Shown piece after piece: positions 16,945-39,095 of a stretch of DNA of 40,278 bases. The notes below the pieces were generated by a model. It searched no databases. It was given only the letters and a program-made list of their open reading frames with translations, and had not been told where the DNA came from. The stretch covers positions 1 to 40,278 of the forward strand of contig JABDLU010000008.1 in assembly GCA_013002865.1 (NCBI GenBank), written 5' to 3'. The DNA comes from Acidimicrobiia bacterium (GTDB lineage: Bacteria; Actinomycetota; Acidimicrobiia; Spongiisociales; SHLN01). The first letter of the stretch is position 1. The number at the start of each line of letters is the position of its first letter. A program made the translations under genes and the position numbers.

Positions 16945-18432
16945 ATGGGCAATCGCGACGAAGGGGTGCTGGAGGCACCCGCCGAACAGTTCGATCCCGA
17001 GCGTGTTGCTGCCGCTCTGCGAATTGCCCAGTCCGTGCAGGCGGTCAACCACACCTTGGTGACGGTCATCGGAAACCTCGTGCCGGCAGTGGTCTTCGTA
17101 GTGCTCGATTGGGACGGTCTCGTCGCCAGCTACGCCCTGTACCCGCTGGCCGCAGTAGCGCTCGTGTCGCTGCTGGCCCTTCGCAGTTACTGGCGGCTCC
17201 GCAACCGGCCGCCGCCCGAGCGAGTGAGTCCCCGGCGCATCCGGGCCATCGAAGCCCAGTTCGCGATGAGCGGTGCGGCCTGGGGTTTGGCCACGTTCCT
17301 CGTGATGGGTCAGTACAGCCGATCAGACTCGCTGGTCGTGTTTATCGCCATGGGGACGTTCTCATATGCCACCGCTGGCACCTTTGGCACCGTGCCGCGG
17401 GGCACGGCCGTATTGAGCGTCCTCGTGTACCTCGGCATCTTCGGCGGAGTGCTGGTGAACGACGTTCTGTCGCCGGGGGTCTTGCTCCTGATCGGGATCG
17501 GCCAGGTTGCCGGGGTGGTGCTGACGATCCGGTGGAATTGGCTGACGGCGATCCGGTCTCTCCAGCTCCACTCGGTTGTCGAGACGCAACGGGAGACGCT
17601 TGCCGGTGTCGCCGAACAACTTGGCAAGTACATCTCGCCTCAGCTCTACGAGAGGATCTTCCGTGGCGAGCAGCGCGTGGAGATCCGTTCGACGCGCAAG
17701 AAGCTCACGGTCTTCTTTTCGGACGTGGTCAGTTTCACCGAAATCACCGATCAGCTCGAGTCCGAGGAGCTCACCGCCCTGTTGAACCATTATCTCGGCG
17801 AGATGTCGCTCATCGCCGAGCAGCATGGAGCGACGTTCGACAAATTCATCGGTGATGCCATCGTGCTCTACTTCGGCGATCCAGACACCCGCGGGGTCAC
17901 CGAGGACGCGGAGGCCTGTGTGCGCATGGCGATCGACATGCAGCGGAGGGTCCGCCAGCTCCAAGGCGAGTGGCGGGATCGAGGAGTGGAACGTCCGTTC
18001 GAAATCCGAATCGGTATCAACACCGGCTATTGCACGGTTGGCAACTTTGGGAGCCCGGAGCGGATGAACTACACGATCATCGGGAGCGAAGTGAATCTGG
18101 CGTCTCGGCTGGAATCGGCGGCCGACGTCGGCGGCATCCTGTTGTCACACGAGACGTACTCGCTGGTGAAGGACTGGGTAATGGCCGAGGAAGCCCAGGC
18201 CATTACCGTCAAAGGATTCGCCCGTCCGGTAACGACCTATCGGGTTCTCGGGATCTATGACGACCTGGAACGCCAGGGCCGTGTTATCCACCGCGCCCAT
18301 TCCGGGTTCTCGGTCACCGTGGACAAGGCCCGATTGAGCGAAGATGATCGGGCAGCTGCCATCCGATCGCTCGAGGAGGTGGTTGGCGAATTGTCTGAGC
18401 AGGACCCTGGCGCCGCGGGCTCGTCAGCCTGA
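16945..18432 (+). CDS. Membrane-anchored class III adenylate/guanylate cyclase
   Basis: Several N-terminal TMs then FFSDVVSFTEITDQLESEELTALLNHYLGEM...FDKFIGDAIVLYFG...IRIGINTGYCTVGNFGSPERMNYTIIGSEVNLASRLE. Confidence 0.94.
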   Translation: MGNRDEGVLEAPAEQFDPERVAAALRIAQSVQAVNHTLVTVIGNLVPAVVFVVLDWDGLVASYALYPLAAVALVSLLALRSYWRLRNRPPPERVSPRRIRAIEAQFAMSGAAWGLATFLVMGQYSRSDSLVVFIAMGTFSYATAGTFGTVPRGTAVLSVLVYLGIFGGVLVNDVLSPGVLLLIGIGQVAGVVLTIRWNWLTAIRSLQLHSVVETQRETLAGVAEQLGKYISPQLYERIFRGEQRVEIRSTRKKLTVFFSDVVSFTEITDQLESEELTALLNHYLGEMSLIAEQHGATFDKFIGDAIVLYFGDPDTRGVTEDAEACVRMAIDMQRRVRQLQGEWRDRGVERPFEIRIGINTGYCTVGNFGSPERMNYTIIGSEVNLASRLESAADVGGILLSHETYSLVKDWVMAEEAQAITVKGFARPVTTYRVLGIYDDLERQGRVIHRAHSGFSVTVDKARLSEDDRAAAIRSLEEVVGELSEQDPGAAGSSA

Positions 18433-21400
18433 TGTCACGATGACCATGTCGGAGCCGGAGCGGCCGAAGGTCTCGGGGGCGTAGATCTCTTCGGCCTTGG
18501 TGGGGGGAACGACGAAGGTCCCGGGAGTGGTGGCCCGCGCCACGTAGGTGTACTCGTAGGTGCCGGCGCCGAGCAGTGAGCTGAAGGCTTCGGCCCGGTC
18601 GTCGCGCAGGTTCTGATGCTCGTACCACTGCCACCACCAGTAGGTGACCCGGGGGGCGTCGGAGAACTCCTCCGCCGGGATGGGTGGGGTCACCGCCAGC
18701 GCCGGGTTGAGGGGCTCTAGTCCGGCGGGGAGGGGGTCGACCAGGGCGACGTGGGTGCGGCGGCTGTCGGCCACCATGGTGAGGCGGACCCGGACGTCGG
18801 CGCCGGCCTTGATTTGCCAGGTGCCGTCGGCATCGCGAGTCACATCGCCCGGGTCGTCGACGGCTTCGTAGCTGCGCTGCACCGCGAAGCCCCGGTCGAG
18901 CGGATCGAGGTCGAGGTCGTCGGGGGCGTAGCGGAGGCCGAGCCGGTAGTAGAGGCGACCGGTGCCGTCCTTCTGAACGACGAGCCGGCTCTCGCCGCCG
19001 GTGGCCTGGTCGATGAGGTCGGCCATCGGGACGATGGTCTCCGCCCGATCGGTGGTGCGGCCGGCGAACTCGTGCTCGGCGGCGTACAGGTCGCCCAGCC
19101 AGATGCGGGCCACGAAGTCGGGGGTGGCAGCCTCGAACGTGTCGAAATACTTGTTGAGCGCCAGCAGGATGAAGGCGTTCTCCTGCACGTTGTTCCAGCG
19201 GCCCCGGGTCTGGTTGCCGAGCAGCCCGGCGACCACCTTGGGGATCAGGTCGCTGGCCGGGGCCTGCTGGATCAGGGCGTCGAGGACGATGCCGTCGGTG
19301 CGGCGGTCCGAGTGCAGCAGCAGGTAGGCGTCTTCGCCGTAATCGGTAGTGAAGGTGGCCGCCGCCGCGGTCTCGGTGACCCGGTTCTGGAAGGTGCGTT
19401 CGATCTCGGCGGCCGATGCGCCATCGCCGATCACCGGCCACAGCCAGGCCAGCGCGTCCAGTTCCAGCGTGGCACCGGCCCGCGAGTACAGCTGGCCGGC
19501 CTTGGCCGTGTCGCGGTCGCCCGCCACGTTGCGGACGTGGAGGGCGTAGGCGCTGAGGCTGTCACGGGTCTGCTGGGAGTAGTCGGCCGGGTAGAACTGC
19601 TCGATATTGCGCAGGTAAGACAGCGCCCGTTCCAGACCGCCGGACGGCACGGCGTAGCCGTTGGCCTTGGCCTCGACCAGGGCATGGGTGGCCTGGATGC
19701 TGTGATAGGGAATGGTCTCGTTGGTGCGCCGCCAGATGGCGAAGCCGCCGACGTCGGTCTGCAGGGCGAGCAGGTCGTCGATGTCCTGGGCGACCCGGGC
19801 GTCCAGTTCGGCGGCAGGCGGCAGTCCTTCGGCGTCGAAGGCATCCAGCACGTCCCTCAGGGCCGCAATCGCCAGGATGCGGGAGGCCAGCGCGTCCGAG
19901 CTGTCGTAGCGATAGTCGTTCAAGTAGATGACGGCGTCCGTCAGGGCCTGCAGAGCGGTTGATGAGGTGTTGACCTCCAGCCCGCCGAACTGCGGGAACA
20001 CGGCGGTGGGGGCCAGGATCGACTGGGCGATTACCCCGTCGTCGACTACGCCGTAGGTGGCGAACGCCTCGCTGGTGGCCGGCGTGTACACCGGGAGGGA
20101 GATGGTGGCGGCATCGGCCAGGGTGCCGCTCACCGCCGCCACCCGGAAGCGGGCGGTCCCGACGTCCTCGGCGGCGGCCGGGAACCGGACCTCGATGCGG
20201 TCGTTGGCCGGCACCGTCACCCGCCGTCCGGCGCCATCGGTCAGCGTCAGGTTGGCGGTCTGGATGCCGACCTCGACGGTCAGGTCCTGGTCGGTCTGGT
20301 TCTGGAGCACGACCGGCAGCTCGAAGACGTCGCCGAAGTTGAGGAACCGGGGAGCGGACGGGCGGACCATCAGCGGCAGGCGGGCGGTGATGTTGGATTC
20401 GGCCGAACCAAACCGGTCGACGCCGTCGACGGCGACGACCATCACCCGATAGCGGGTGAGGTTGTCGGGCAACGGGATATCGACGGTGGCCGTACCGTCG
20501 GCGGCGGTGGTGACCTCCGGCTCGAACACGGCCAGCGCATCGAAGTTGCTTCGCACGTCGATGGGCGACTCGCCGTCGTCTCCCAGGCCGGCCGGGGCCA
20601 TCGCACGGGCGGCGCCGTCGGCCGATTCCTCGGTCGCGAAATCGCTGCCGCCGGCGCCGGCAAGGGTGGTCGTGGCGGCGGAATCGCCGTCCGAGGCGAA
20701 CCGCTCGGGGTTGGCGAGCTCGATAGTGCTGCGGAGGTAGCGGGTGCCGAGCTGGGACCAGATGGGCCGGTAGAAGACGTCGAGGGGATCTGGGAGCTGA
20801 TAGTTGGTCAGGGCGAGGACCGCCTCGTCGACGACGACCAGGGCCAGCTCGGCGTCCGGAACCGGGGCGCCAGTGGCGTCGCGGACGGTCACATCGACCC
20901 GGGTGGTGCTGCCCGGCTCGGTTGTCGGGTCGGCCGGCGTCGCCGTCACCTGGAGAGTGCGGCTGACCGGGGGCACCTGCAACGTGAGGCTCCCGGTAGC
21001 AAAGGCGGGGCGCGGCGGAGCGTCGGAGAGGGGCTCACCGGCGTCGGTGGTCCGATCGGTCGATCCGACGACGTCAACCTGGACGTGCAGCGTCGGGATG
21101 TGCTGGTCGGCGATCGGGACGGTGAGCACCGTACCGGCTGCGGCCACCGTGAAGTGCTCCTGGGAGACCACGCCGTTTCGACTGATGGTGAGCAGGCCTT
21201 CGGCGGGCAGGAACGGCGTGTCGATCAGGATCTCGGCGACGTCGCCGGGGGCGTACTCGGCTTTGTCGGGGATCAGGGTCACGTCTTGCTGGGTAACGGT
21301 GCGCTCCGGACGGGGAGTGCCGCCGCTCACCCAGCGGGTCAGCTCGCTGCGGCTGGTGCGGCCGGCCGCATCCTCGACCACGGCGACCACCTGATACTGG

Positions 21401-24400
21401 CCGCCGATGTCGGTGGTGAACTCACAGGACAGCGGCTCGTCGGCCGACGACACGGTGCAGGTTTGGGCCTCGACTGCGATCTCCTGCCACTCGCCGTTGA
21501 CGACCCGCCACTCCAGCCGGCCGGCGGTGATGGTCACCGGGCGTCCGGCAACAGCGGCACCGTCGATATCGGTCACGATCGCCTCGATCGAGAGCGGCTC
21601 ACCGGCCTTGACGAAGGTGCGGGCGCTGCGCAGGCCGACATAGTTCTCGGCGGGGTGGACCAGCAGGTCGACGCCGTCGGCCCAGGCCTGGCGGTTGACG
21701 TCGAACACGGTGGCCTGGGATGAGACGGTGGTGGGGAGGCCCTCCCCGTCGCCGTCGAAATCGATCCGGAGGTAGTGGGCACCGTTCCCGTCGGTGCGGC
21801 CGGCGAAGGTCTCGACCGTCCCCGGATCGAACGTGGGACCGAAGCCCCCGCCGAACCCTTCGTCGAAGGCGACGTCTGCCCCGAACCCGCCGCCGCCGAA
21901 ACTGTTGCCGCCGAAGTCGTCCCGGTACCACCACGGGATCCACACGCCGAAGGTGAAGTCGTCCCAGTTGGGCGGGGAGTAGGTGGCCTGGCGGGTCGTG
22001 ACCGTCCACTCGACCTCGGCGTCGGGGAGCGGGCCCCCGGAGAAGTAGGCGGCGTCGACCGCCACGGTGGCGGGCCGGCCGACCACGTACGGGCCGGGCG
22101 TCTCGGCGCGGGCGCTGACTTCGAATTCGGGTCGGCGGAACTCCTGGATCTGGAACGTATGGCTGTGGGAGCGCTGCAGGTTGGAGGCACCGTCCAGCGA
22201 GAGGTTGACCCAGGCTTGCCCCAGGTTGGCGCCGGGGGGTATCTCGACGGCGAAATCGAATCCGCCGAGGGCGTTGAGGTCGACCGACCCGGAGCCGATC
22301 TCGTTGCCGAACCAGTCGTTGACCTGGTAACCGACCGACGCATTGGCGGCCACCTCGGCCAGCTGGGCGTCGGCGCTGGTGGTGAGGCGGCGCACCCAGC
22401 CCTTGAAGCGGGCCGTCTCGCCCGGGCGGTACATCTGGCGGTCGTCGAACACGTACCAGACGGACTGGTCGGTCTGGTCGGAGCGGTACCAATCGGAATC
22501 GAAGATGGTGCTGTCCTCGCCCAGCCGGGCGATCAACTGGCCGGCTCCGCTGTTGCGTGACGAGGGTTTGTCGAAGGTGGCCAGGCCGTCGGCGTTGGTG
22601 GTGGCGGTCCCCGAGATGTTGGAGAAGGACACCTCGACGCCGGACAGCGGCTGACCGGAGCGCAAATCGGTCGCCCAGGCGACCAGCTGGTCGTTGTCCT
22701 CGAACACGTCGGTCCCGACCGTGGTGGCCTGCGCCCATACCAGGGTGGGGCGGTTGCTCCAGTAGTCGTTGTCGTTCGGGGTGAGGGCGGCCAGCGCCCC
22801 GGTCGGCTCGACCAGCACGATCACGTGGCCCGGTGCGCCATCCAGGGCCTCGCCCAGCTCGATGGCGGTCTCGGTCAACTCGTTCTCGTCGGCGTTGGTG
22901 TCGACCGTGAAGTCGGCCACCTCCTCCCAGGCGGACGGCAGGGGCCTGGGCTCCCGGTTGTTCCAGCGGTTATCCCAGTAATTCGTGTACGACGGCCAAT
23001 CGGACGGATCGACTGAGAAGAGGTGCACCCGGAGCTCGTCGTGATTGACCGTCGTGACCGACAGGGCGGGCTCGTCGGCCAGCGGGTCGAGGGTGATGAG
23101 GCGGTTCCGGAACTGATCGAGGTACGGGCGGGCGTCATCGATGTCGAACTCGACCCGTTCGTCATCGCCCAGCGTCTGGCCGAAGACGTCCGGCAGGTCG
23201 GCGTCGACGGTCACCCGGTAGGTGGTGCCTCCAACGGTGGCGCCGCGGATGGAGATCGAGTCGTAGTCGGCAAACACGCTCATCCCGGCCAGGGTGGGCT
23301 CGATGCGGATCATCGATGGGTCGAAGGCGTCGAGGTCGAGCGGGTTGTTGAAGCTGATCCACAGGCTGCGGCCCGGTTCACACCGATCGTTGCCCTGACA
23401 CGAGAAATCGTCGATGGCGAGCGGGGCGTAGGTGCGGGCGGTGAACCGTTCGCTGCCGTCGGACACCCGGGGGCCTTCCGCCGAGGGGGTTTGCGGTCCC
23501 ACCTGGATGGCCAGGGCGGTGTCGGGCTCGAACGCCTCGACGGCCCGGAACGCCAGCCAGCGATTCTCCAGCAGCCCGTCGGTGCGGTTGCCGATGCGGT
23601 CGTCGGCGGCGATCTCGTCGTCGGTGGCGAGGCGGATGGCCTTCTGGTCACCGCCGGCGGTCAGGGTGATGGTGTCCAGCACGGCGGCGGCGTCGACTCG
23701 CTGGTCGAACACCACCAGAAAGACCGGCTCCAGGGTGAGAGAGTCGCCCTGCGGCTGGAACGACTGCACCTGCACCGGGGGAGTGGTGAACTCCCACGAC
23801 ACGGTCTCTGCCAGGCGGCCGCCGGTCTCCGAGGTGGTGCCGGCCGGGATCTCCACCCGGTAGGACGTGGCCATCGGGAGGCGATCGAACAGCGTGCGGT
23901 CGTGCTCGAAGCGGAGCGTGCGGGTGCCGATCCATTCCCAGCGTCCCGGCAGCTCGGGAGTGACGGTGACGGGGACATCGAGCTCGGTGAGCTGGTCGAA
24001 GGTGGCGAGCGGGACCATCGGCTGGTTGAAGGTGATGCTGATGAACGGGGCGATGTCGACGTCACCCTCAGGCTGGAAGCGGAGCACCTCCAGTGGGCCG
24101 GTGGGAACCTCCGGTGGGGGGTCGCCCGGATCGGCCGGGAAGGGAACGTCGATGGTCTCGCCGACCAGTGGCGGGCGGAGCGACTCGGCGGGGCGGTTGA
24201 AGTCGAGCCGATCGTCGGCGGGCACCATCCACTCGGGGAGGCGGTCGAAGATGGCGGCGACGGCGTCCTCGTCGAGCGGTTCGCCATCGACGACGGAGAT
24301 GGGCGCGGGGTCCTCGAAGATCTGGGCGGTCCCGGCGCTGAGGCGCACCGTCAGCGGCTCACCGGGCGGGCCGAGGGCGAGGATCTCACCGGAGCCGCCG

Positions 24401-24531
24401 GGTCCACCACCGCTCGGTGGGGGATCGTCGGACGATGAGGTGCACATGGTGGCAACGAGGGCGAGCACGATGAACACGACGAGTGCGCCTCCAATTCGCG
24501 TAGCTGTCCGACCGCTGGTAGCTGTCGCCAT
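18424..24531 (-). CDS. Alpha-2-macroglobulin family protein (2035 aa, thioester motif absent)
   Basis: N-terminal membrane anchor; MG-domain text (SVWYVFDDRQMYRPGETARFKGWVRR; TADGTATVDIPLPDNLTRYRVMVVAVDGVDRFGSAESNITARLPLMVRPSAPRFLNFGD; TED-like LNDYRYDSSDALASRILAIAALRDV). Confidence 0.93.
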   Translation of the reverse strand: MATATSGRTATRIGGALVVFIVLALVATMCTSSSDDPPPSGGGPGGSGEILALGPPGEPLTVRLSAGTAQIFEDPAPISVVDGEPLDEDAVAAIFDRLPEWMVPADDRLDFNRPAESLRPPLVGETIDVPFPADPGDPPPEVPTGPLEVLRFQPEGDVDIAPFISITFNQPMVPLATFDQLTELDVPVTVTPELPGRWEWIGTRTLRFEHDRTLFDRLPMATSYRVEIPAGTTSETGGRLAETVSWEFTTPPVQVQSFQPQGDSLTLEPVFLVVFDQRVDAAAVLDTITLTAGGDQKAIRLATDDEIAADDRIGNRTDGLLENRWLAFRAVEAFEPDTALAIQVGPQTPSAEGPRVSDGSERFTARTYAPLAIDDFSCQGNDRCEPGRSLWISFNNPLDLDAFDPSMIRIEPTLAGMSVFADYDSISIRGATVGGTTYRVTVDADLPDVFGQTLGDDERVEFDIDDARPYLDQFRNRLITLDPLADEPALSVTTVNHDELRVHLFSVDPSDWPSYTNYWDNRWNNREPRPLPSAWEEVADFTVDTNADENELTETAIELGEALDGAPGHVIVLVEPTGALAALTPNDNDYWSNRPTLVWAQATTVGTDVFEDNDQLVAWATDLRSGQPLSGVEVSFSNISGTATTNADGLATFDKPSSRNSGAGQLIARLGEDSTIFDSDWYRSDQTDQSVWYVFDDRQMYRPGETARFKGWVRRLTTSADAQLAEVAANASVGYQVNDWFGNEIGSGSVDLNALGGFDFAVEIPPGANLGQAWVNLSLDGASNLQRSHSHTFQIQEFRRPEFEVSARAETPGPYVVGRPATVAVDAAYFSGGPLPDAEVEWTVTTRQATYSPPNWDDFTFGVWIPWWYRDDFGGNSFGGGGFGADVAFDEGFGGGFGPTFDPGTVETFAGRTDGNGAHYLRIDFDGDGEGLPTTVSSQATVFDVNRQAWADGVDLLVHPAENYVGLRSARTFVKAGEPLSIEAIVTDIDGAAVAGRPVTITAGRLEWRVVNGEWQEIAVEAQTCTVSSADEPLSCEFTTDIGGQYQVVAVVEDAAGRTSRSELTRWVSGGTPRPERTVTQQDVTLIPDKAEYAPGDVAEILIDTPFLPAEGLLTISRNGVVSQEHFTVAAAGTVLTVPIADQHIPTLHVQVDVVGSTDRTTDAGEPLSDAPPRPAFATGSLTLQVPPVSRTLQVTATPADPTTEPGSTTRVDVTVRDATGAPVPDAELALVVVDEAVLALTNYQLPDPLDVFYRPIWSQLGTRYLRSTIELANPERFASDGDSAATTTLAGAGGSDFATEESADGAARAMAPAGLGDDGESPIDVRSNFDALAVFEPEVTTAADGTATVDIPLPDNLTRYRVMVVAVDGVDRFGSAESNITARLPLMVRPSAPRFLNFGDVFELPVVLQNQTDQDLTVEVGIQTANLTLTDGAGRRVTVPANDRIEVRFPAAAEDVGTARFRVAAVSGTLADAATISLPVYTPATSEAFATYGVVDDGVIAQSILAPTAVFPQFGGLEVNTSSTALQALTDAVIYLNDYRYDSSDALASRILAIAALRDVLDAFDAEGLPPAAELDARVAQDIDDLLALQTDVGGFAIWRRTNETIPYHSIQATHALVEAKANGYAVPSGGLERALSYLRNIEQFYPADYSQQTRDSLSAYALHVRNVAGDRDTAKAGQLYSRAGATLELDALAWLWPVIGDGASAAEIERTFQNRVTETAAAATFTTDYGEDAYLLLHSDRRTDGIVLDALIQQAPASDLIPKVVAGLLGNQTRGRWNNVQENAFILLALNKYFDTFEAATPDFVARIWLGDLYAAEHEFAGRTTDRAETIVPMADLIDQATGGESRLVVQKDGTGRLYYRLGLRYAPDDLDLDPLDRGFAVQRSYEAVDDPGDVTRDADGTWQIKAGADVRVRLTMVADSRRTHVALVDPLPAGLEPLNPALAVTPPIPAEEFSDAPRVTYWWWQWYEHQNLRDDRAEAFSSLLGAGTYEYTYVARATTPGTFVVPPTKAEEIYAPETFGRSGSDMVIVTSG

Positions 24532-25333: not shown

Positions 25334-25358
25334 GGACGGGCGACGGGGGACGGGGGAC
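25334..25358. repeat. G-rich heptad repeat (GGGSGAC)n, short copy
   Basis: GGAC-GGGCGAC-GGGGGAC-GGGGGAC directly abutting the NACHT gene stop codon. Confidence 0.7.
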
Positions 25359-28300
25359 TAGACCGTCACCGCCACCCGGCAGCCGCGGAAGTTGAGCCAT
25401 TCGTCGGGGCGGAGGTCGTAGCGGTCGCGGCCCCGGTAGGTGGTGCGGGCGTGGACCTCACCGAGATACCAGGCGCCGCCCATCCCCACCCGGCTCACCG
25501 TGATGGGAGCGTTTTCGTTCTCGCGGCCGTCGTCGGGATCGTACGGGTAGGGCCAGCTGGTCTGGATGGGATCGTCACCCCACAGGCTGGAGGTGAGGTC
25601 GTAGGTGTTGCCGCATAGGTCGGCGATGCCTTCCGGGGTGTCACCGTCGGGGAAGACCCCGATCGGCGTCGGACCTCGCACGTGGGTCTCGGTCGTGTTG
25701 CCGCGCAGCGGGTCGAACTCGTTGCCGTAGGCGAACCGCCGCCGCTGGCGGCCTGCCGCGGCGGCCTCCCACTCGGCCTCGGTCGGCAATCGGAACGGCA
25801 GGTCGGATTGCACGGCCAGCCACAGGGTGTAGGCCCGGGCCTCGAACCAGCTGATCCCGATCACCGGCTGCATGGGATTGTTGAACCGGGGGTCGCGCCA
25901 GTGGCGGGGCTCGGTGCGGCGGCCCTCGGGGTAGTACTCACGCAGGTGGGCCTCGAATTCCTCGTCGGTCATGTTCATCCGACGCAGCCACAGCTCATAC
26001 ATGGGCCGCTCCATGCGGTCGCTGCGGTACTCCTCCTCAACCAGTTCGGGGTCGGCCTGGAAGCGGTCCCGCCAGAAGCGGGCCATGCGCCGCACGTTTA
26101 CCACCGTGTCGCGGCCCGAGCGCCACGCCTTGGCTTCGTCCCCGGGCCAGAATCGCTCGTCCTCATATCCGTCACCGGCGATGAAGCCCGCCCATTCCCG
26201 GTTGGTGACGGCGAACTTGCCGAGCGCAAACGGCTGCAGGGTCACCGGCCCGGCCGGCACCTCCTCGTAGTAGAGGACGCCCCGGTACTCGTAGGGCCCA
26301 TCAGACCCGATGACATACTCGCCACCCGGGACCTCCACCATTGGCGGGAGCAAGTACTCCCCGTACGGCCCGGTGCAGCGCTCGAAGCGGGGCCCGCCGA
26401 GGTGGCCGACGGCCAGGCCGGCGGCGACGCGGCGGCGCAGGTCGATGTCGGGCCGGCGACTGTCCGTCCATAGCCGGTTGGCGAGATCGTTCCGGATCTT
26501 GGGCTCGAGCAGACCGGCCAACTCGGGAAGCGCCGCGCACCGGCCCGCCAGTACCAGGTTGGCTTCAGCCAATTCCTCGATGAAGCGGCCCGGGTCGGGT
26601 GACATCGGCGCCGCCATCAACACCGTCTCCTCCCAGCCGGTGCCGGGCAGCGGGGGGAGTGGGTCGGCCGGGCCGAGTCCGGCCAGCTCTTCGTGCACCG
26701 GGATTGCGGAGGGCGGAACGAGCCGCTCCATCTCCGGCTGCGCCGTGAGGTGCCGGGCGGCGAAATACTCCTGGATCAGCTGGTGAGTGAACGTGACCTC
26801 GTCGGTGAGTTCACGCTCGTCGAGCACCCCGAGCGCCTCCGCCGCCGAGATCACCTCTTCGGCGGCAGGGTGGTCGATGAGCTCCAGCGCCCGGTCGTAG
26901 GCGGTTTGCACCAGCCAGCCGTCGCCGCCCTCGACCGTGGCCTGCATGCGGTAGGCGAGGCGCTCCAGGGCGGAAAGGAGGATTCCTCGGTCGGGGAGTT
27001 CCACCGGGGAGGACCAGCGCCACGAGATCACGCTGCGCCGGTCCCGGTCGGTGAGCAGTTCCTCATCGTCGAACAACGGGTTGTCGCGCTCCAGCTCGCG
27101 CTTGACGGCCTGGCGGACGAAGCCGGTGAACAGCCCGGCCCGGCCGGTGGGGATGGCGCCCTCCGCTTCCACCTGATCGACCAGCAGCTTGAGGAAGAAG
27201 GGCGACCGGAACATGTCGATGTGGTCGGTCCCTCCGATGTGCTCCCAGATCTCGGCCCAGCGGCGAGGGGAGTACAGCTTCAGGTATTGGCGGACCTGGC
27301 TGTTGGAGAGGGGCTCGAGGCGTACCTGCGGTACCCGCAGGGTGGGGGAGGACAGGGGAGTGGAATAGTCGAGGCTGCGGCACGAGAACACGAACCGGTT
27401 GCCCCACGCACCCGACGTGGTGGCGTGCACAAAGTCCTTCCAGGCCCGCACACTCGAGCGGTAGCCGGACTGCCCGGCGGCGTTCATCTCGTTGAGGCCG
27501 TCGAGGAGGAACAGCACCCGGCCGGCATCGACGAGCTCTTCGAGCGGAGCGAGGTCACCGGCGCGCTTCTCCCACATGTCGGCCGCCCACCCGGCCGGAT
27601 CGTCGCCCGACCGGTACTGGTTGAGCGGCAGGTAGAGGGTGATGGGAGCGGACTCGTCGCCCCCCTGGATGCCTCGCAGCGCGGCTTCCAGCTCCAGCCG
27701 GCGCAGCACGGTGCTCTTGCCGGCGCCGGGCGATCCCAGCACGACCAGGGCCGGGTCGGGCACCTCCCGCAGCAGTTTGCCGACGCTTTCGATCGGCCTG
27801 CTGTCGGTGCCCCAGCGCTCACCGTCGCTGTCCTCACCCTGGTCGACCAGCATGGTCAGCTCGACGAAGCGGGCGTCGATCTGGTAGCGGGGTTGGGACC
27901 ATTGCACCAGTCGGGCCAGGCGGTATTCGTCGAACGACCCGGGGTCGCGCCGGACCAGGGCGGCCAGGTCATCTGGGGACACCACCGCCCGGCCGTCGTC
28001 GGCGCGCAGTTGTTCCAGAAGCGCAGCCGGGTCCGCCGCCGGCGCGTCCGACGCGAAGCGGATTCGCCGGCCGGGGTCGAGGTGAGACGGAGTGCGCAGC
28101 GGCGGCAGCTGTCCTGCCCGTTCGGTCGGCACCAGCTCGAACACGGTCTCGACGTGCTCGTGGTCCTGCAGCAGACGGGCTCCCCACGACCGGATCTCGA
28201 TCGAATCAGGCAGGCTGCCCGCTACCTGGTCGTAGGCGGCGGCGGTGAGCAGGATCTGCCCGCCGTGCCCGGCCGAGTTGAGCCGGGCGGCCCGCTCCAG

Positions 28301-29239
28301 GGCCTCCGGGCTGGCGGTGCCGTCGCCAACATGGATGGCGGCGCGGGTGAGGAGGGTGCCGATCCCGGGCCAGTCGGCCTCCCACGGCTCGGTCTCGATG
28401 CGCCGCAGCAGCGCCACCGCCGCCCGGCCGGCGGCGTCGGCGGACGGGAACTGCAGGAACGACGATCCCGGTCCGGCCTCCAGCACCCGGCCCTCGAACT
28501 CGGTGGTCACGGACTCGACCAGGGCTTCGTAGCGGCTAACGATGGAAGAGATCGATTCGGCGAATCGGACCGTCAGCTGGTCGGCGTCTTCCAGGTCGAG
28601 ATGCACGATGGCGGGCCCGGTTGCCGCCGAAGCCGCCCGCGCCGGAGTAGGGGTTCCCCCTTCCCGGGCGGCGAGCAGTGCTTCGGGCCGCCACAACAGT
28701 TCATAGAGGCGGTGCAGGGTGTCGGTACCGCGCAGCCCCCGCTCCTCGAAGAACGCACAGCGGCCGGCCAGGGCGCCGTCGAGTGTGGCGTAGACGGCGT
28801 CGGAGATGATGATCTGGTCGCCGTCGGCCAGCTGCTCGATGCGGGAGGCCACGTTGATGACGTTCCCGTACATCGTGTGCTCCTCGCGGATCCCCACCCC
28901 GGCGTGGATGGCGATGCGGACGTGCAACTGGTCGATCCGGTCGCCGACATCCCTGTTAGCGACGGCGATGGCGTGCTGCATCTCGATGGCGGCCCGGCAC
29001 GCATCGGGCCCTTGCGGGAAGATCGCCAGCATCCCGTCGCCGGTGTGGGCGATGATCTCGCCGCCCCACTCGGCCACCAGCGGATGGAGCAGGTCGTCGT
29101 GCAGCTGGACCTTGCGGCGCCCGGCCTCGTCGCCCTTCAGGGTGTAGTAGGCGGTCGAGCCCTCGATGTCGGTGAACATGGCCACGGCGAACCGCGCGGC
29201 CGACGATGCGGATGGGCTGTGCCGGCTGTTCGCATCCAT
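25358..29239 (-). CDS. Class III cyclase - degenerate cyclase - NACHT NTPase - FGE/SUMF-like domain fusion protein (1293 aa)
   Basis: FTDIEGST...HTGDGMLAIF...GNVINVASRIE (cyclase); Walker A GSPGAGKST (27710-27736), Walker B VLFLLDGLNEM, FVFSCRSLDY and FTHQLIQEYFAARHL (NACHT); MVEVPGGEYVIGSD...FALGKFAVTNREWAGFI...FRLPTEAEWEAAAAG...GGAWYLGEVHARTTYRGRDRYDLRPDEWLNFRGCRVAV (FGE-sulfatase-like). Confidence 0.93.
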   Translation of the reverse strand: MDANSRHSPSASSAARFAVAMFTDIEGSTAYYTLKGDEAGRRKVQLHDDLLHPLVAEWGGEIIAHTGDGMLAIFPQGPDACRAAIEMQHAIAVANRDVGDRIDQLHVRIAIHAGVGIREEHTMYGNVINVASRIEQLADGDQIIISDAVYATLDGALAGRCAFFEERGLRGTDTLHRLYELLWRPEALLAAREGGTPTPARAASAATGPAIVHLDLEDADQLTVRFAESISSIVSRYEALVESVTTEFEGRVLEAGPGSSFLQFPSADAAGRAAVALLRRIETEPWEADWPGIGTLLTRAAIHVGDGTASPEALERAARLNSAGHGGQILLTAAAYDQVAGSLPDSIEIRSWGARLLQDHEHVETVFELVPTERAGQLPPLRTPSHLDPGRRIRFASDAPAADPAALLEQLRADDGRAVVSPDDLAALVRRDPGSFDEYRLARLVQWSQPRYQIDARFVELTMLVDQGEDSDGERWGTDSRPIESVGKLLREVPDPALVVLGSPGAGKSTVLRRLELEAALRGIQGGDESAPITLYLPLNQYRSGDDPAGWAADMWEKRAGDLAPLEELVDAGRVLFLLDGLNEMNAAGQSGYRSSVRAWKDFVHATTSGAWGNRFVFSCRSLDYSTPLSSPTLRVPQVRLEPLSNSQVRQYLKLYSPRRWAEIWEHIGGTDHIDMFRSPFFLKLLVDQVEAEGAIPTGRAGLFTGFVRQAVKRELERDNPLFDDEELLTDRDRRSVISWRWSSPVELPDRGILLSALERLAYRMQATVEGGDGWLVQTAYDRALELIDHPAAEEVISAAEALGVLDERELTDEVTFTHQLIQEYFAARHLTAQPEMERLVPPSAIPVHEELAGLGPADPLPPLPGTGWEETVLMAAPMSPDPGRFIEELAEANLVLAGRCAALPELAGLLEPKIRNDLANRLWTDSRRPDIDLRRRVAAGLAVGHLGGPRFERCTGPYGEYLLPPMVEVPGGEYVIGSDGPYEYRGVLYYEEVPAGPVTLQPFALGKFAVTNREWAGFIAGDGYEDERFWPGDEAKAWRSGRDTVVNVRRMARFWRDRFQADPELVEEEYRSDRMERPMYELWLRRMNMTDEEFEAHLREYYPEGRRTEPRHWRDPRFNNPMQPVIGISWFEARAYTLWLAVQSDLPFRLPTEAEWEAAAAGRQRRRFAYGNEFDPLRGNTTETHVRGPTPIGVFPDGDTPEGIADLCGNTYDLTSSLWGDDPIQTSWPYPYDPDDGRENENAPITVSRVGMGGAWYLGEVHARTTYRGRDRYDLRPDEWLNFRGCRVAVTV

Positions 29240-35893: not shown

Positions 35894-36424
35894 TCAGCGC
35901 GGTATCCGGTCGGCGCCGCTGACGTCGGAGAAGATGTCGGGGTCGAGATGGCCGCCTCCGTGAACGACGCTGACGTCACCCGTGGTTTCGAGGACGACGT
36001 AGCGGACCTCGTCGTAGTTGCGCACGTTGGCCTCGCGGAGCTTGCCGCGCACGTCATCCTCCGTCACCCGAACCCGGCGCAGATTGTCGGTCAGCATTTC
36101 GCTGCCGGCCATCAATAAGGTCGGTGTGTTGTCAACCAGGCGGGACACCCACCCGAACCGTCGCCGACCGAGCGCGATGATCGCCTGCACTCCCAGCAAG
36201 GACGCCACCGCGATCAGTCCTTCGATCAGTGAAGAGTTCGACAGCGTCACCGCCGCCAACAGCGATCCCATCGCCACCGTGACCGCAAAATCGAACGACG
36301 ACATCTTCGCAAAGCTCCGCAGCCCGATGATCTGAACGTACAGGACCACCCCGACCACCATGGCGGTGGCGGACAGAACGACGAACCCGACGTCGGACCA
36401 CGACGTAAAGATTTCGGTGGACAT
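35894..36424 (-). CDS. DUF421 (YetF-like) membrane protein
   Basis: YVQIIGLRSFAKMSSFDFAVTVAMGSLLAAVTLSNSSLIEGLIAVASLLGVQAIIALGRRRFGWVSRLVDNTPTLLMAGSEMLTDNLRRVRVTEDDVRGKLREANV; start at 36424. Confidence 0.9.
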   Translation of the reverse strand: MSTEIFTSWSDVGFVVLSATAMVVGVVLYVQIIGLRSFAKMSSFDFAVTVAMGSLLAAVTLSNSSLIEGLIAVASLLGVQAIIALGRRRFGWVSRLVDNTPTLLMAGSEMLTDNLRRVRVTEDDVRGKLREANVRNYDEVRYVVLETTGDVSVVHGGGHLDPDIFSDVSGADRIPR

Positions 36425-36527
36425 GGCGAGCCTCTCCTTCTGGCCGGCGTCGGTGACGGGGCGAGAGACTATCCCACACGCCCGCCGGTGGCGCCGGACA
36501 CCGCATCGTGCATTTAGAGTTGCCATC

Positions 36528-39095
36528 ATGGACGCGCTTCCATCCGGGGTACTGACGCTCCTGTTCACCGACATCGAGCAGAGCAGCCGGCTGTGGGACG
36601 AGCATCGCTCCGACATGGCGGTGGCCCTGGTCCGTCACAACGAGCTGCTCAAGTCGATCATTGCCGAGCACCAGGGGTTCGTGGTCAAGGACAAGGGCGA
36701 CGGCTTTTTCGCCGCCTTTGTGGCCCCGGCCGATGCCGTTCGCTGTGTGGTCGATGCCCAGCGGCGCCTGCGCGCCGAATCGTGGCCGGACCCCGTCGAC
36801 ATCAAGGTGCGGATGGGCCTTCATACCGGAGCCGTCGAAGCTCACGAGGGTGACTATCACGGGCCGACCGTCAACCAGGTGGCCCGCATCGAAGGGCTGG
36901 CGCACGGCGGACAGGTATTGCTCTCGGAGACAACCGTCGCCCTACTGGGCGGGGACCTGCCGGACGGCGTCGGCACCCGAGACCTCGGAGCACACACCCT
37001 GAAAGGTATCTCCCAACCCGCCCGTGTCTATCAGCTGACCGCTCCGGATCTTCCCGAGGAGTTCCCGCCGCTGGTCTCCAGCCATGCCGTGGGAGTGCCG
37101 CTGCCCGACTTCCCCACCTCGTTTGTGGGCCGGGAGGACGACCGCCGCGCCCTGGCTGGCTACTTCACCGGCAACGGCACCCGGCTGGTCACACTGCTTG
37201 GCCCGGGCGGCATCGGCAAGACCCGCCTGGCCGTTGAAGCCGCCCGTGAGGTAGCTCCCGAGCTGGGGGCGTCCGCCTACTTCGCCGACCTCACCTCGGT
37301 GCAGGTGGCGACCGACGTGCCGGGGGCGATCGCCGCCGCCCTCGGCGTCCGGGTGGAAGGGGCGGCACCTCCGGTCGAGCTGATCGCCCAGCGGATATCC
37401 GAGCCCAGCCTGCTGGTGGTCGACAACTTCGAGCACGTGCAGGACGCCCAGGGGACCGTCGGCGAGCTCGTTAACACCGTCGAGCCGCTCCGGATCATGG
37501 CCACCAGCCGGACCCCGCTCCAGGTACGGGGCGAGAAGATCTACCGGCTCGATCCGCTCGGGGTGGCCGGCGGCAACGGCCGGCGGCCTCCGGCCGTGCA
37601 GCTCTTCTACGACCGGGCGGCCGACTACGGAGTCGAACTGGCCGACGCCGGACCGGAAGCTAACTCCGTGCACGCCATCGTCGAGCGGGTCGACGGGCTC
37701 CCGCTGGCCATCGAGCTGGTGGCGGCCCGCACCCGGGTGCTAGACGTCACCGAGCTCAACGCCCGGCTGCAGGAATCCATGGGGGTGATCGGGAGCGGGG
37801 GAGCCGAGCTGCCCGAACGCCAGCGCACCATTCGCTCCACTATCGACTGGAGCCTGAAACACGTCTCCGAGTCGCAGCGCACGCTGTTCCGCCGGCTGGC
37901 GGCGCTCCCGGCGGGCGCATCGCTGGACGTGCTGGAAGCCGTTGCCGGCACCGACCTCGACGAGGACCTGCTCGATGCCGTGCAGGGGCTGGTCGACTAT
38001 TCGCTGGTCCAGGCCGTGCGGGGCCTACCGGGCGGCACCCGCTACCGCCAGCTGGTGCCGATGCGCGAGCACGGCCTCGATCTGCTTCGGGAGGCCGGTG
38101 ACGAGGAGCAGGTCCTGGGCCGCCTGGTCGACTACTTCGTCGATACGGCAGTGGAGCGTGGCCAGAGCTTCGAATTCAGCCACGAGCCCGAACGGGAACT
38201 GCGCGTCGATCACCAGAATCTCCTGGCGGCGATGCGCTTCAGCCTCGACCACAGCCGGGCCGGTGACCTGGCCGAAGCGTTCAACCACTTCTGGGTGTAC
38301 TGGTTCAACGCCGACATCGGCATGACGGCACTTCCCTGGCTGGCCGCCGCCGCCGAGCAAGTCGATACCCCGTACATGGACTTCTTAATGGGGTTCTTTG
38401 CATTCCAGCAAGGCGACATGGAGTCGGTGGGCGAGCGGATGGGCCGTGCCATTGAAGGCTTTTCCGAACTGGGCGACCAACGGGCCCTCAACCGGGCTCG
38501 CTGGTTCGCCGGTGCTGCCCATCCCGATCTGACCGAGGGCCGGCGCATGCTGCTGGCGGGCAAGGAGTACTTCGATACCGAGCAGGACGGGATCAGTCGG
38601 TTTCTGCCACTGCTGTTTCTGAGCATTAATGCGGTACTGCAGGGCGACACCGCCCAAGTGGTTGAGCTGCGCAAGTCGCTCCTCAACTGGGCCGAGCGGG
38701 CCGACTACCGGGTGCTGATCGCCTGGGGGCACTGGAACCTGTCGCTGGGCTACATCGCCATCGAGGACTTCGATGCCGCCGAATCCCATGCCCGGGCGGC
38801 GCTCGAGATGATGGTTGAGGATCAGTACATCGAGGGCATGGCGTCGGCCCTGGACCTGATCGGGATCCTGGAAAGCCGCGCTGGCAATCACGAGCGGGCG
38901 CTGCCGTTGTTCGGGGCCGCGAGCGACGGATTCGAAAAGATTCAGGCCCACCGCTGGTTCGAGTCGGAGATGTTCATGAACCAGGCAATTGCGGCGGCCA
39001 CCGAGGACATGGGCGAGGAGCGGGTGGCGGGGCTGCTCGAGCAGGGACGGGCCGCCGGCCTCGACGAGATGCTGAAGTCGGTCGAGTCGAACTAG
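36528..39095 (+). CDS. Class III cyclase - P-loop ATPase (STAND/NB-ARC-like) - TPR-like protein
   Basis: LLFTDIEQSSRLWDEH...VVKDKGDGFFAAF...GPTVNQVARIEGLAHGGQVLLSE; LLGPGGIGKTRLAVEAA Walker A; LLVVDNFEHVQDA Walker B; helical repeats at C-terminus. Confidence 0.93.
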   Translation: MDALPSGVLTLLFTDIEQSSRLWDEHRSDMAVALVRHNELLKSIIAEHQGFVVKDKGDGFFAAFVAPADAVRCVVDAQRRLRAESWPDPVDIKVRMGLHTGAVEAHEGDYHGPTVNQVARIEGLAHGGQVLLSETTVALLGGDLPDGVGTRDLGAHTLKGISQPARVYQLTAPDLPEEFPPLVSSHAVGVPLPDFPTSFVGREDDRRALAGYFTGNGTRLVTLLGPGGIGKTRLAVEAAREVAPELGASAYFADLTSVQVATDVPGAIAAALGVRVEGAAPPVELIAQRISEPSLLVVDNFEHVQDAQGTVGELVNTVEPLRIMATSRTPLQVRGEKIYRLDPLGVAGGNGRRPPAVQLFYDRAADYGVELADAGPEANSVHAIVERVDGLPLAIELVAARTRVLDVTELNARLQESMGVIGSGGAELPERQRTIRSTIDWSLKHVSESQRTLFRRLAALPAGASLDVLEAVAGTDLDEDLLDAVQGLVDYSLVQAVRGLPGGTRYRQLVPMREHGLDLLREAGDEEQVLGRLVDYFVDTAVERGQSFEFSHEPERELRVDHQNLLAAMRFSLDHSRAGDLAEAFNHFWVYWFNADIGMTALPWLAAAAEQVDTPYMDFLMGFFAFQQGDMESVGERMGRAIEGFSELGDQRALNRARWFAGAAHPDLTEGRRMLLAGKEYFDTEQDGISRFLPLLFLSINAVLQGDTAQVVELRKSLLNWAERADYRVLIAWGHWNLSLGYIAIEDFDAAESHARAALEMMVEDQYIEGMASALDLIGILESRAGNHERALPLFGAASDGFEKIQAHRWFESEMFMNQAIAAATEDMGEERVAGLLEQGRAAGLDEMLKSVESN

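What the first reader, a model, noticed from the sequence alone, without database searches (positions are those of the whole stretch)
25358..29239. Cyclase - pseudo-cyclase - NACHT - FGE-like single-chain protein: candidate undescribed STAND-type signalling/defence system
One 1293-aa ORF joins a class III nucleotide cyclase domain, a second degenerate cyclase-like domain, a NACHT NTPase (GSPGAGKST, VLFLLDGLNEM, FVFSCRSLDY, FTHQLIQEYFAARHL) and a C-terminal FGE-sulfatase/C-type-lectin-fold domain. NACHT/STAND proteins usually pair an N-terminal effector with a C-terminal sensor. Here the effector slot holds a nucleotide cyclase, so the testable model is ligand binding by the FGE-like domain, NACHT oligomerisation, then cyclic nucleotide synthesis. 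Bacterial NACHT proteins include anti-phage proteins (established); a defence role here is inference. A developmental or stress-signalling role is equally open.
Basis: partly seen in the sequence, partly recalled or inferred. Interest (0 to 1): 0.78.

Follow-up and report, generated by a model that had tools for sequence, protein, structure and literature searches.

The report
Cyclase-armed bacterial NLR-like sensor protein
This bacterial gene joins a signal-making enzyme (a nucleotide cyclase), a switch domain related to animal and plant immune receptors, and a lectin-like sensing domain in one protein; the overall design was already predicted for bacterial defence, but having a cyclase as the output is a variant I did not find described.

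Summary
The ORF at 25358-29239 (minus strand, 1293 aa) encodes class III cyclase, degenerate cyclase, NACHT NTPase and FGE/C-type-lectin-fold domains. Cyclase 1 keeps both metal Asp and the transition-state Asn/Arg but lacks the usual Lys/Asp substrate pair (Ala64/Thr122). Cyclase 2 has the cyclase fold but lost one metal Asp and the Asn. The FGE domain lacks the catalytic Cys pair.

The chassis is not undescribed: Kaur et al. 2021 (PMC8195603) predicted STAND NTPase-FGS proteins as conflict systems with interchangeable N-terminal effectors. I found two chassis relatives with other N-termini: a 39%-identical NACHT-FGE protein on a plasmid/ICE-like contig, and a metallophosphatase-NACHT-FGE protein in an IMG/VR contig. 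That paper's text does not list a cyclase among NTPase-FGS effectors, and I found no second cyclase-NACHT-FGE protein. Cyclase-STAND fusions themselves are common in this order.

Defence is plausible but unproven: the window is metabolic, with no reverse transcriptase, template repeat or recognised partner effector. Most likely mechanism: ligand binding by the FGE-like domain drives NACHT oligomerisation, cyclase-1 domains pair between protomers, and a cNMP acts on receptors encoded elsewhere. New variant of a known kind.

The parts
25358..29239 (-). Whole gene, 1293 aa: cyclase 1 - pseudo-cyclase 2 - NACHT - FGE-like
28682..29188 (-). Cyclase 1 (aa 18-186): D24, D68, N129, R133 kept; A64 and T122 in place of the Lys/Asp substrate pair
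28124..28618 (-). Cyclase 2, degenerate (aa 208-372): D215 and R319 kept, second metal Asp replaced by G258, Asn by E315
26735..27895 (-). NACHT module (aa 449-835)
   Evidence: Pfam stretch 498-600, extent from alignment with the G063 homologue
27710..27736 (-). Walker A GSPGAGKST (aa 502-510, K508)
27485..27517 (-). Walker B VLFLLDGLNEM (aa 575-585)
26747..26791 (-). Winged-helix motif FTHQLIQEYFAARHL (aa 817-831)
26378..26437 (-). Linker RRRVAAGLAVGHLGGPRFER (aa 935-954), shared with NACHT-FGE relatives
25370..26347 (-). FGE/C-type-lectin-fold domain (aa 965-1290), no catalytic Cys pair; presumed sensor

Best explanation
A bacterial NLR-like (NACHT STAND) sensor whose output is a cyclic mononucleotide. 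The FGE/lectin-fold C-terminus binds a cue, possibly an invader molecule or a glycan. Nucleotide exchange then lets the NACHT module oligomerise. That brings cyclase-1 domains of neighbouring protomers together into catalytic homodimers, each with complete metal and transition-state residues. The product cNMP (base unknown, because the purine-specifying Lys/Asp pair is missing) acts in trans on cNMP receptors encoded elsewhere in the genome. Cyclase 2 is a catalytically dead regulatory or spacer domain that may hold cyclase 1 inactive in the resting monomer. The protein belongs to the STAND NTPase-FGS family predicted by Kaur et al. 2021, with a new effector. Shown by sequence: the domains, the residues kept or lost, the chassis homology and the effector swapping. 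Inferred: ligand binding, oligomerisation, cyclase activity and biological role. I put the activation logic at about 0.5 and an anti-phage or other conflict role at about 0.4.
For: Domains. Catalytic residues of cyclase 1 intact, those of cyclase 2 lost; in a cyclase 1:cyclase 2 pair neither site would hold the full residue set, which favours pairing between protomers (inference). Same NACHT-FGE chassis with a different N-terminus: G063 homologue, 39% identity over aa 435-1258, on a contig with ParA, Replic_Relax and Phage_rep_O genes; metallophosphatase-NACHT-FGE protein in IMG/VR locus L078. FGE active-site Cys pair absent, so sensing rather than catalysis. The genome has 17 cyclase matches and 9 cNMP-binding domains above cut-off, so cNMP signalling exists. 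Family precedent: PMC8195603; validated metallophosphatase-NACHT defence protein DS-8 in PMC13092281.
Against: Window neighbours are metabolic or cell-envelope genes, with no defence island or dedicated receptor gene. No reverse transcriptase or template repeat in a 90% complete genome. Only one occurrence of the full architecture, so no conservation test on the combined protein. The altered substrate residues could mean a weak or dead cyclase 1. The AlphaFold model of the NACHT-FGE part was unusable (pLDDT 41), and the tandem cyclase arrangement was not modelled.
Confidence: 0.5

Rival explanations
1. Regulatory, not defence: a cyclase-STAND signalling protein of the common actinobacterial type, in which the FGE-like domain senses a metabolite, glycan or envelope cue and cNMP adjusts transcription through CRP-like proteins.
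For: Cyclase-STAND fusions are common in the order (14 of 30 NACHT-scoring loci, query included); tandem cyclase-AAA_16-TPR proteins in the same genome; metabolic and envelope neighbours; 9 cNMP-binding domains above cut-off.
Against: The NACHT-FGE chassis is patchy (one other genome among 345 of the class); that copy is on a plasmid/ICE-like contig and another relative in an IMG/VR contig, which fits conflict genes better.
Confidence: 0.33
2. Intramolecular pseudo-heterodimer as in mammalian soluble adenylyl cyclase: cyclase 1 and cyclase 2 pair within one chain to form one site, and the NACHT-FGE part modulates it without oligomerisation.
For: Tandem arrangement with a short linker; tandem cyclase-NTPase-TPR proteins of sAC-like order exist in the genome; cyclase 2 keeps R319.
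Against: Cyclase 2 has Glu at the transition-state Asn and has lost the loop before it and one metal Asp, so neither composite site is complete.
Confidence: 0.2
3. Cyclase 1 is not an active enzyme: both cyclase-fold domains bind nucleotide or act as protein-interaction modules, and the true effector is recruited in trans.
For: Lys/Asp substrate pair replaced; inactive cNMP cyclase domains are reported in related ternary conflict systems (PMC7159879).
Against: Both metal Asp and the Asn/Arg pair are kept, which is not expected in a dead domain.
Confidence: 0.15
4. A Pycsar-like pyrimidine cyclase fused to its own sensor.
For: PADLOC PycC matches (E 2e-9); purine-specifying residues missing.
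Against: An ordinary membrane cyclase in the same window also scores against PycC models, so the match is generic; the residues do not match the published UTP or CTP sets; no CNBD-TIR or CNBD-TM gene recognised nearby.
Confidence: 0.08

Closest known systems
STAND NTPase-FGS conflict systems (Kaur et al. 2021, PMC8195603; predicted)
   Same: NACHT-clade NTPase in the middle, FGS/FGE domain at the C-terminus, exchangeable N-terminal effector
   Different: Effectors named in its text are TIR, DRHyd, calcineurin, caspase, trypsin, kinase, FHA and EADs; a tandem class III cyclase is not named for this chassis. No DGR found here.
Bacterial NACHT (bNACHT) antiphage proteins (PMC12169576) and DS-8 metallophosphatase-NACHT (PMC13092281)
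   Same: Effector-NACHT plan with a C-terminal sensing part
   Different: Other effectors and C-termini; only a weak match to the EruA antiphage NACHT model (38.5 bits against a cut-off of 1000)
Cyclase-STAND/AAA-TPR proteins of this order, and mammalian soluble adenylyl cyclase (sAC, own knowledge)
   Same: N-terminal class III cyclase(s) followed by a STAND-type NTPase; tandem forms in the same genome
   Different: C-terminal TPR or other regions, not FGE; AAA_16-type NTPase rather than the NACHT-FGE chassis
DGR-diversified NACHT-CLec targets (Dore et al. 2024, PMC10907252)
   Same: NACHT fused to a C-terminal CLec/FGE fold, proposed antigen sensor
   Different: No reverse transcriptase or template repeat in this genome
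Pycsar PycC (PMC11224242)
   Same: Class III cyclase fold lacking the usual purine-specifying residues
   Different: Here one chain carries its own switch and sensor; no CNBD effector gene recognised beside it; recognition residues differ

Membership tests
STAND NTPase-FGS conflict proteins (PMC8195603) | STAND NTPase of the NACHT, MNS or nSTAND1 clade | tested here: met
   Pfam NACHT above cut-off, Walker A/B, winged-helix motif
STAND NTPase-FGS conflict proteins (PMC8195603) | C-terminal FGS (PF03781) domain | tested here: met
   aa 965-1290, E 2e-35
STAND NTPase-FGS conflict proteins (PMC8195603) | N-terminal effector or EAD, exchangeable between members | tested here: met
   Cyclase here; other N-termini in P0002 and L078; cyclase not in the published list
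STAND NTPase-FGS conflict proteins (PMC8195603) | Frequent (not obligatory) DGR association | tested here: not met
   No RVT_1 match, no repeat of the 3' end; genome about 90% complete
STAND NTPase-FGS conflict proteins (PMC8195603) | Counter-invader function | not testable with these tools
   needs phage assays
Class III nucleotide cyclase (cyclase 1) | Two metal-binding Asp; transition-state Asn and Arg | tested here: met
   D24, D68, N129, R133
Class III nucleotide cyclase (cyclase 1) | Lys/Asp purine-specifying pair of typical adenylate cyclases | tested here: not met
   A64, T122
Class III nucleotide cyclase (cyclase 2) | Cyclase fold | tested here: met
Class III nucleotide cyclase (cyclase 2) | Full set of catalytic residues | tested here: not met
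   second metal Asp and Asn lost
Formylglycine-generating enzyme | Active-site Cys pair near the C-terminus | tested here: not met
   Only C1209 and C1287 within aa 965-1290, no close Cys pair; location of the pair in FGE is from own knowledge
bNACHT antiphage proteins | N-terminal effector, central NACHT, C-terminal sensing domain | tested here: met
   definition from PMC12169576
bNACHT antiphage proteins | Phage protection | not testable with these tools
   no close homologue with data found
Pycsar | Cyclase with an adjacent cNMP-binding effector (PycTIR or PycTM) | tested here: not met
   Pfam scan of the main ORFs of the window shows none; not every ORF was scanned
Pycsar | Published UTP/CTP recognition residues | tested here: inconclusive
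   A64/T122 differ from the residues quoted in PMC11224242, but no structural superposition was made

The most novel reading that the evidence does not exclude
A bacterial NLR-like receptor that turns recognition by a lectin-fold domain into a diffusible cyclic mononucleotide alarm, through NACHT-driven pairing of cyclase domains between protomers, with a pseudo-cyclase as built-in brake and possibly a non-purine product: an NLR that signals by second messenger rather than by a nuclease, protease or TIR effector.
Probability: 0.25. Interest if true: 0.7.

Novelty: new variant of a known kind. Interest (0 to 1): 0.42.

Why it matters
If the cyclase is switched on by NACHT assembly, this would join two strands of bacterial immunity research, NLR-like STAND sensors and cyclic-nucleotide alarm signalling (Pycsar, CBASS), in one chain with an easily assayed read-out (cNMP). 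It would also add an effector type to the predicted NTPase-FGS family and offer a simple way to test whether FGE-like domains act as sensors.

Tried and rejected
DGR hypothesis: rejected for this genome (no RVT_1; only chance-level matches to the 3' end), with the caveat of 90% completeness. Pycsar membership: PADLOC PycC hits also appear for an ordinary membrane cyclase in the window, so they are generic. FGE enzyme activity: no Cys pair. Search for the same full architecture: none in 59 relatives, in 345 class and 397 phylum genomes, in 138 order genomes, in plasmids, or in GTDB contigs by exact peptide patterns (a weak method that only reaches close relatives); phage records gave no match to the NACHT-FGE part. 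AlphaFold of NACHT-FGE from three sequences failed (pLDDT 41) and was not used for fold comparison. The tandem cyclase arrangement was not modelled because single-domain homologues all align onto cyclase 1. Synteny: only the YceG/MltG gene is shared with congeners, and the other genes tested are not beside it; three of those four contigs are short.

Full report
OBSERVATION. The ORF at 25358-29239 on the minus strand is uninterrupted, starts with ATG and encodes 1293 residues. Pfam places a class III cyclase at 21-154, NACHT at 498-600 and FGE-sulfatase at 965-1290, all above curated cut-offs. The 'second degenerate cyclase' is not seen by Pfam, but it is real. A profile built only from other proteins finds it at E 1e-15; its AlphaFold model has mean pLDDT 87 and matches Mycobacterium avium Ma1120 and other class III cyclases in the PDB (E 5e-12).

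ACTIVE SITES. Aligned with about 55 cyclase domains, mostly from the same order, cyclase 1 keeps both metal ligands (D24, D68) and the transition-state pair (N129, R133). The Lys and Asp that usually select the purine base are A64 and T122. Cyclase 2 keeps D215 and R319 but has G258 for the second metal Asp and E315 for the Asn, and has lost the loop before it. So cyclase 1 is probably active with uncertain base preference, and cyclase 2 is a pseudo-enzyme. A cyclase 1:cyclase 2 pair would have no complete site, whereas a pair of cyclase 1 domains from two protomers would. That makes NACHT-driven proximity a natural switch (inference).

NACHT AND SENSOR. Walker A, Walker B and the winged-helix signature FxHxxxQEYFAA are present (the comparison with NACHT signatures is own knowledge). 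A profile of this protein and its closest homologue finds NLRP5, NLRP9 and NLRC4 among weak PDB hits for the NACHT part, and EgtB, FGE and Treponema TvpA for the C-terminus. Within aa 965-1290 the only cysteines are C1209 and C1287, so the Cys pair of true FGE is missing and a binding role is more likely. An AlphaFold run on NACHT-FGE with three sequences failed (pLDDT 41) and is not used.

RELATIVES. No other genome among 138 of the order has the NACHT-FGE chassis. Among 345 genomes of the class one other has it: G063, 39% identity across NACHT and most of FGE. Its N-terminus is not a cyclase, and its contig carries ParA, Replic_Relax and Phage_rep_O genes, so it looks plasmid- or ICE-borne. 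An IMG/VR contig (L078) encodes metallophosphatase-NACHT-FGE and shares the R..AG...G.iG..R linker ahead of the FGE domain. So the NACHT-FGE chassis recurs with different N-terminal effectors. Another IMG/VR contig (L103) encodes cyclase-TM-FGE (the TM segment read by eye). Cyclase-STAND fusions are themselves common here: 14 of the 30 NACHT-scoring loci examined in the order have an N-terminal cyclase, the query included, though none of the others showed an FGE domain in the stretch held. The same genome has tandem cyclase-AAA_16-TPR proteins that resemble soluble adenylyl cyclase in domain order.

SURROUNDINGS. The gene lies between an alpha-2-macroglobulin gene and a YceG/MltG gene, with mostly metabolic genes beyond. 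No defence island or cNMP-binding effector gene was recognised in the window and no reverse transcriptase in the genome. Nine cNMP-binding domains above cut-off exist elsewhere in the genome, so receptors for a diffusible product are available. In four congener copies of the YceG locus this gene is not next to it.

LITERATURE. Kaur et al. [quoted passage not shown] Nucleotide cyclase is not in that list, although the same paper notes a cyclase-FGS-TRADD-N-caspase protein in Gemmata. cNMP cyclases are common in the related ternary systems, where several copies are inactive (PMC7159879). NACHT-CLec proteins are DGR targets in Thiohalocapsa (PMC10907252). A metallophosphatase-NACHT protein (DS-8) is validated in defence (PMC13092281). 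Figure 2I and the source data of Kaur et al. could not be read here and might show a cyclase example.

VERDICT. A real, intact protein: a new effector variant of a known, predicted family. The defence role is plausible (about 0.4) but rests on family analogy, and regulatory signalling is the main rival. No report of this exact architecture was found in the open-access library searched.

Noticed in passing
36360-39095 (+) and 16945-18432 (+): A class III cyclase - AAA_16 - TPR protein (911 aa) and a separate 495-aa cyclase with a hydrophobic N-terminal half: with the gene studied, three cyclase genes within about 22 kb; the genome has 17 cyclase matches.
   Followed up: partly
18424-24531 (-): 2035-aa bacterial alpha-2-macroglobulin with bMG10 and Big domains, next to the gene studied.
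   Followed up: no
L103:3882-5480: Cyclase - probable transmembrane segment - FGE-like protein on an IMG/VR contig (3300037418_003752), a second way of joining cyclase and FGE domains.
   Followed up: partly
L078:3057-6614: Metallophosphatase - NACHT - FGE protein on an 83-kb IMG/VR contig; resembles the DS-8 metallophosphatase-NACHT defence protein in plan.
   Followed up: partly
L177:370-4227 and L178:297-4100 (own genome, contig C83): Two tandem-cyclase - AAA_16 - TPR proteins of sAC-like domain order.
   Followed up: partly
L059:10143-13451: NACHT-FGE homologue whose first ~240 residues have no Pfam family (weak HTH-like hit), on a plasmid/ICE-like contig; possibly an effector-associated domain.
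   Followed up: partly
about 25895-26107: Helical-looking insertion inside the FGE-like domain (about aa 1045-1115), shared with the G063 homologue but mostly absent from L078.
   Followed up: no
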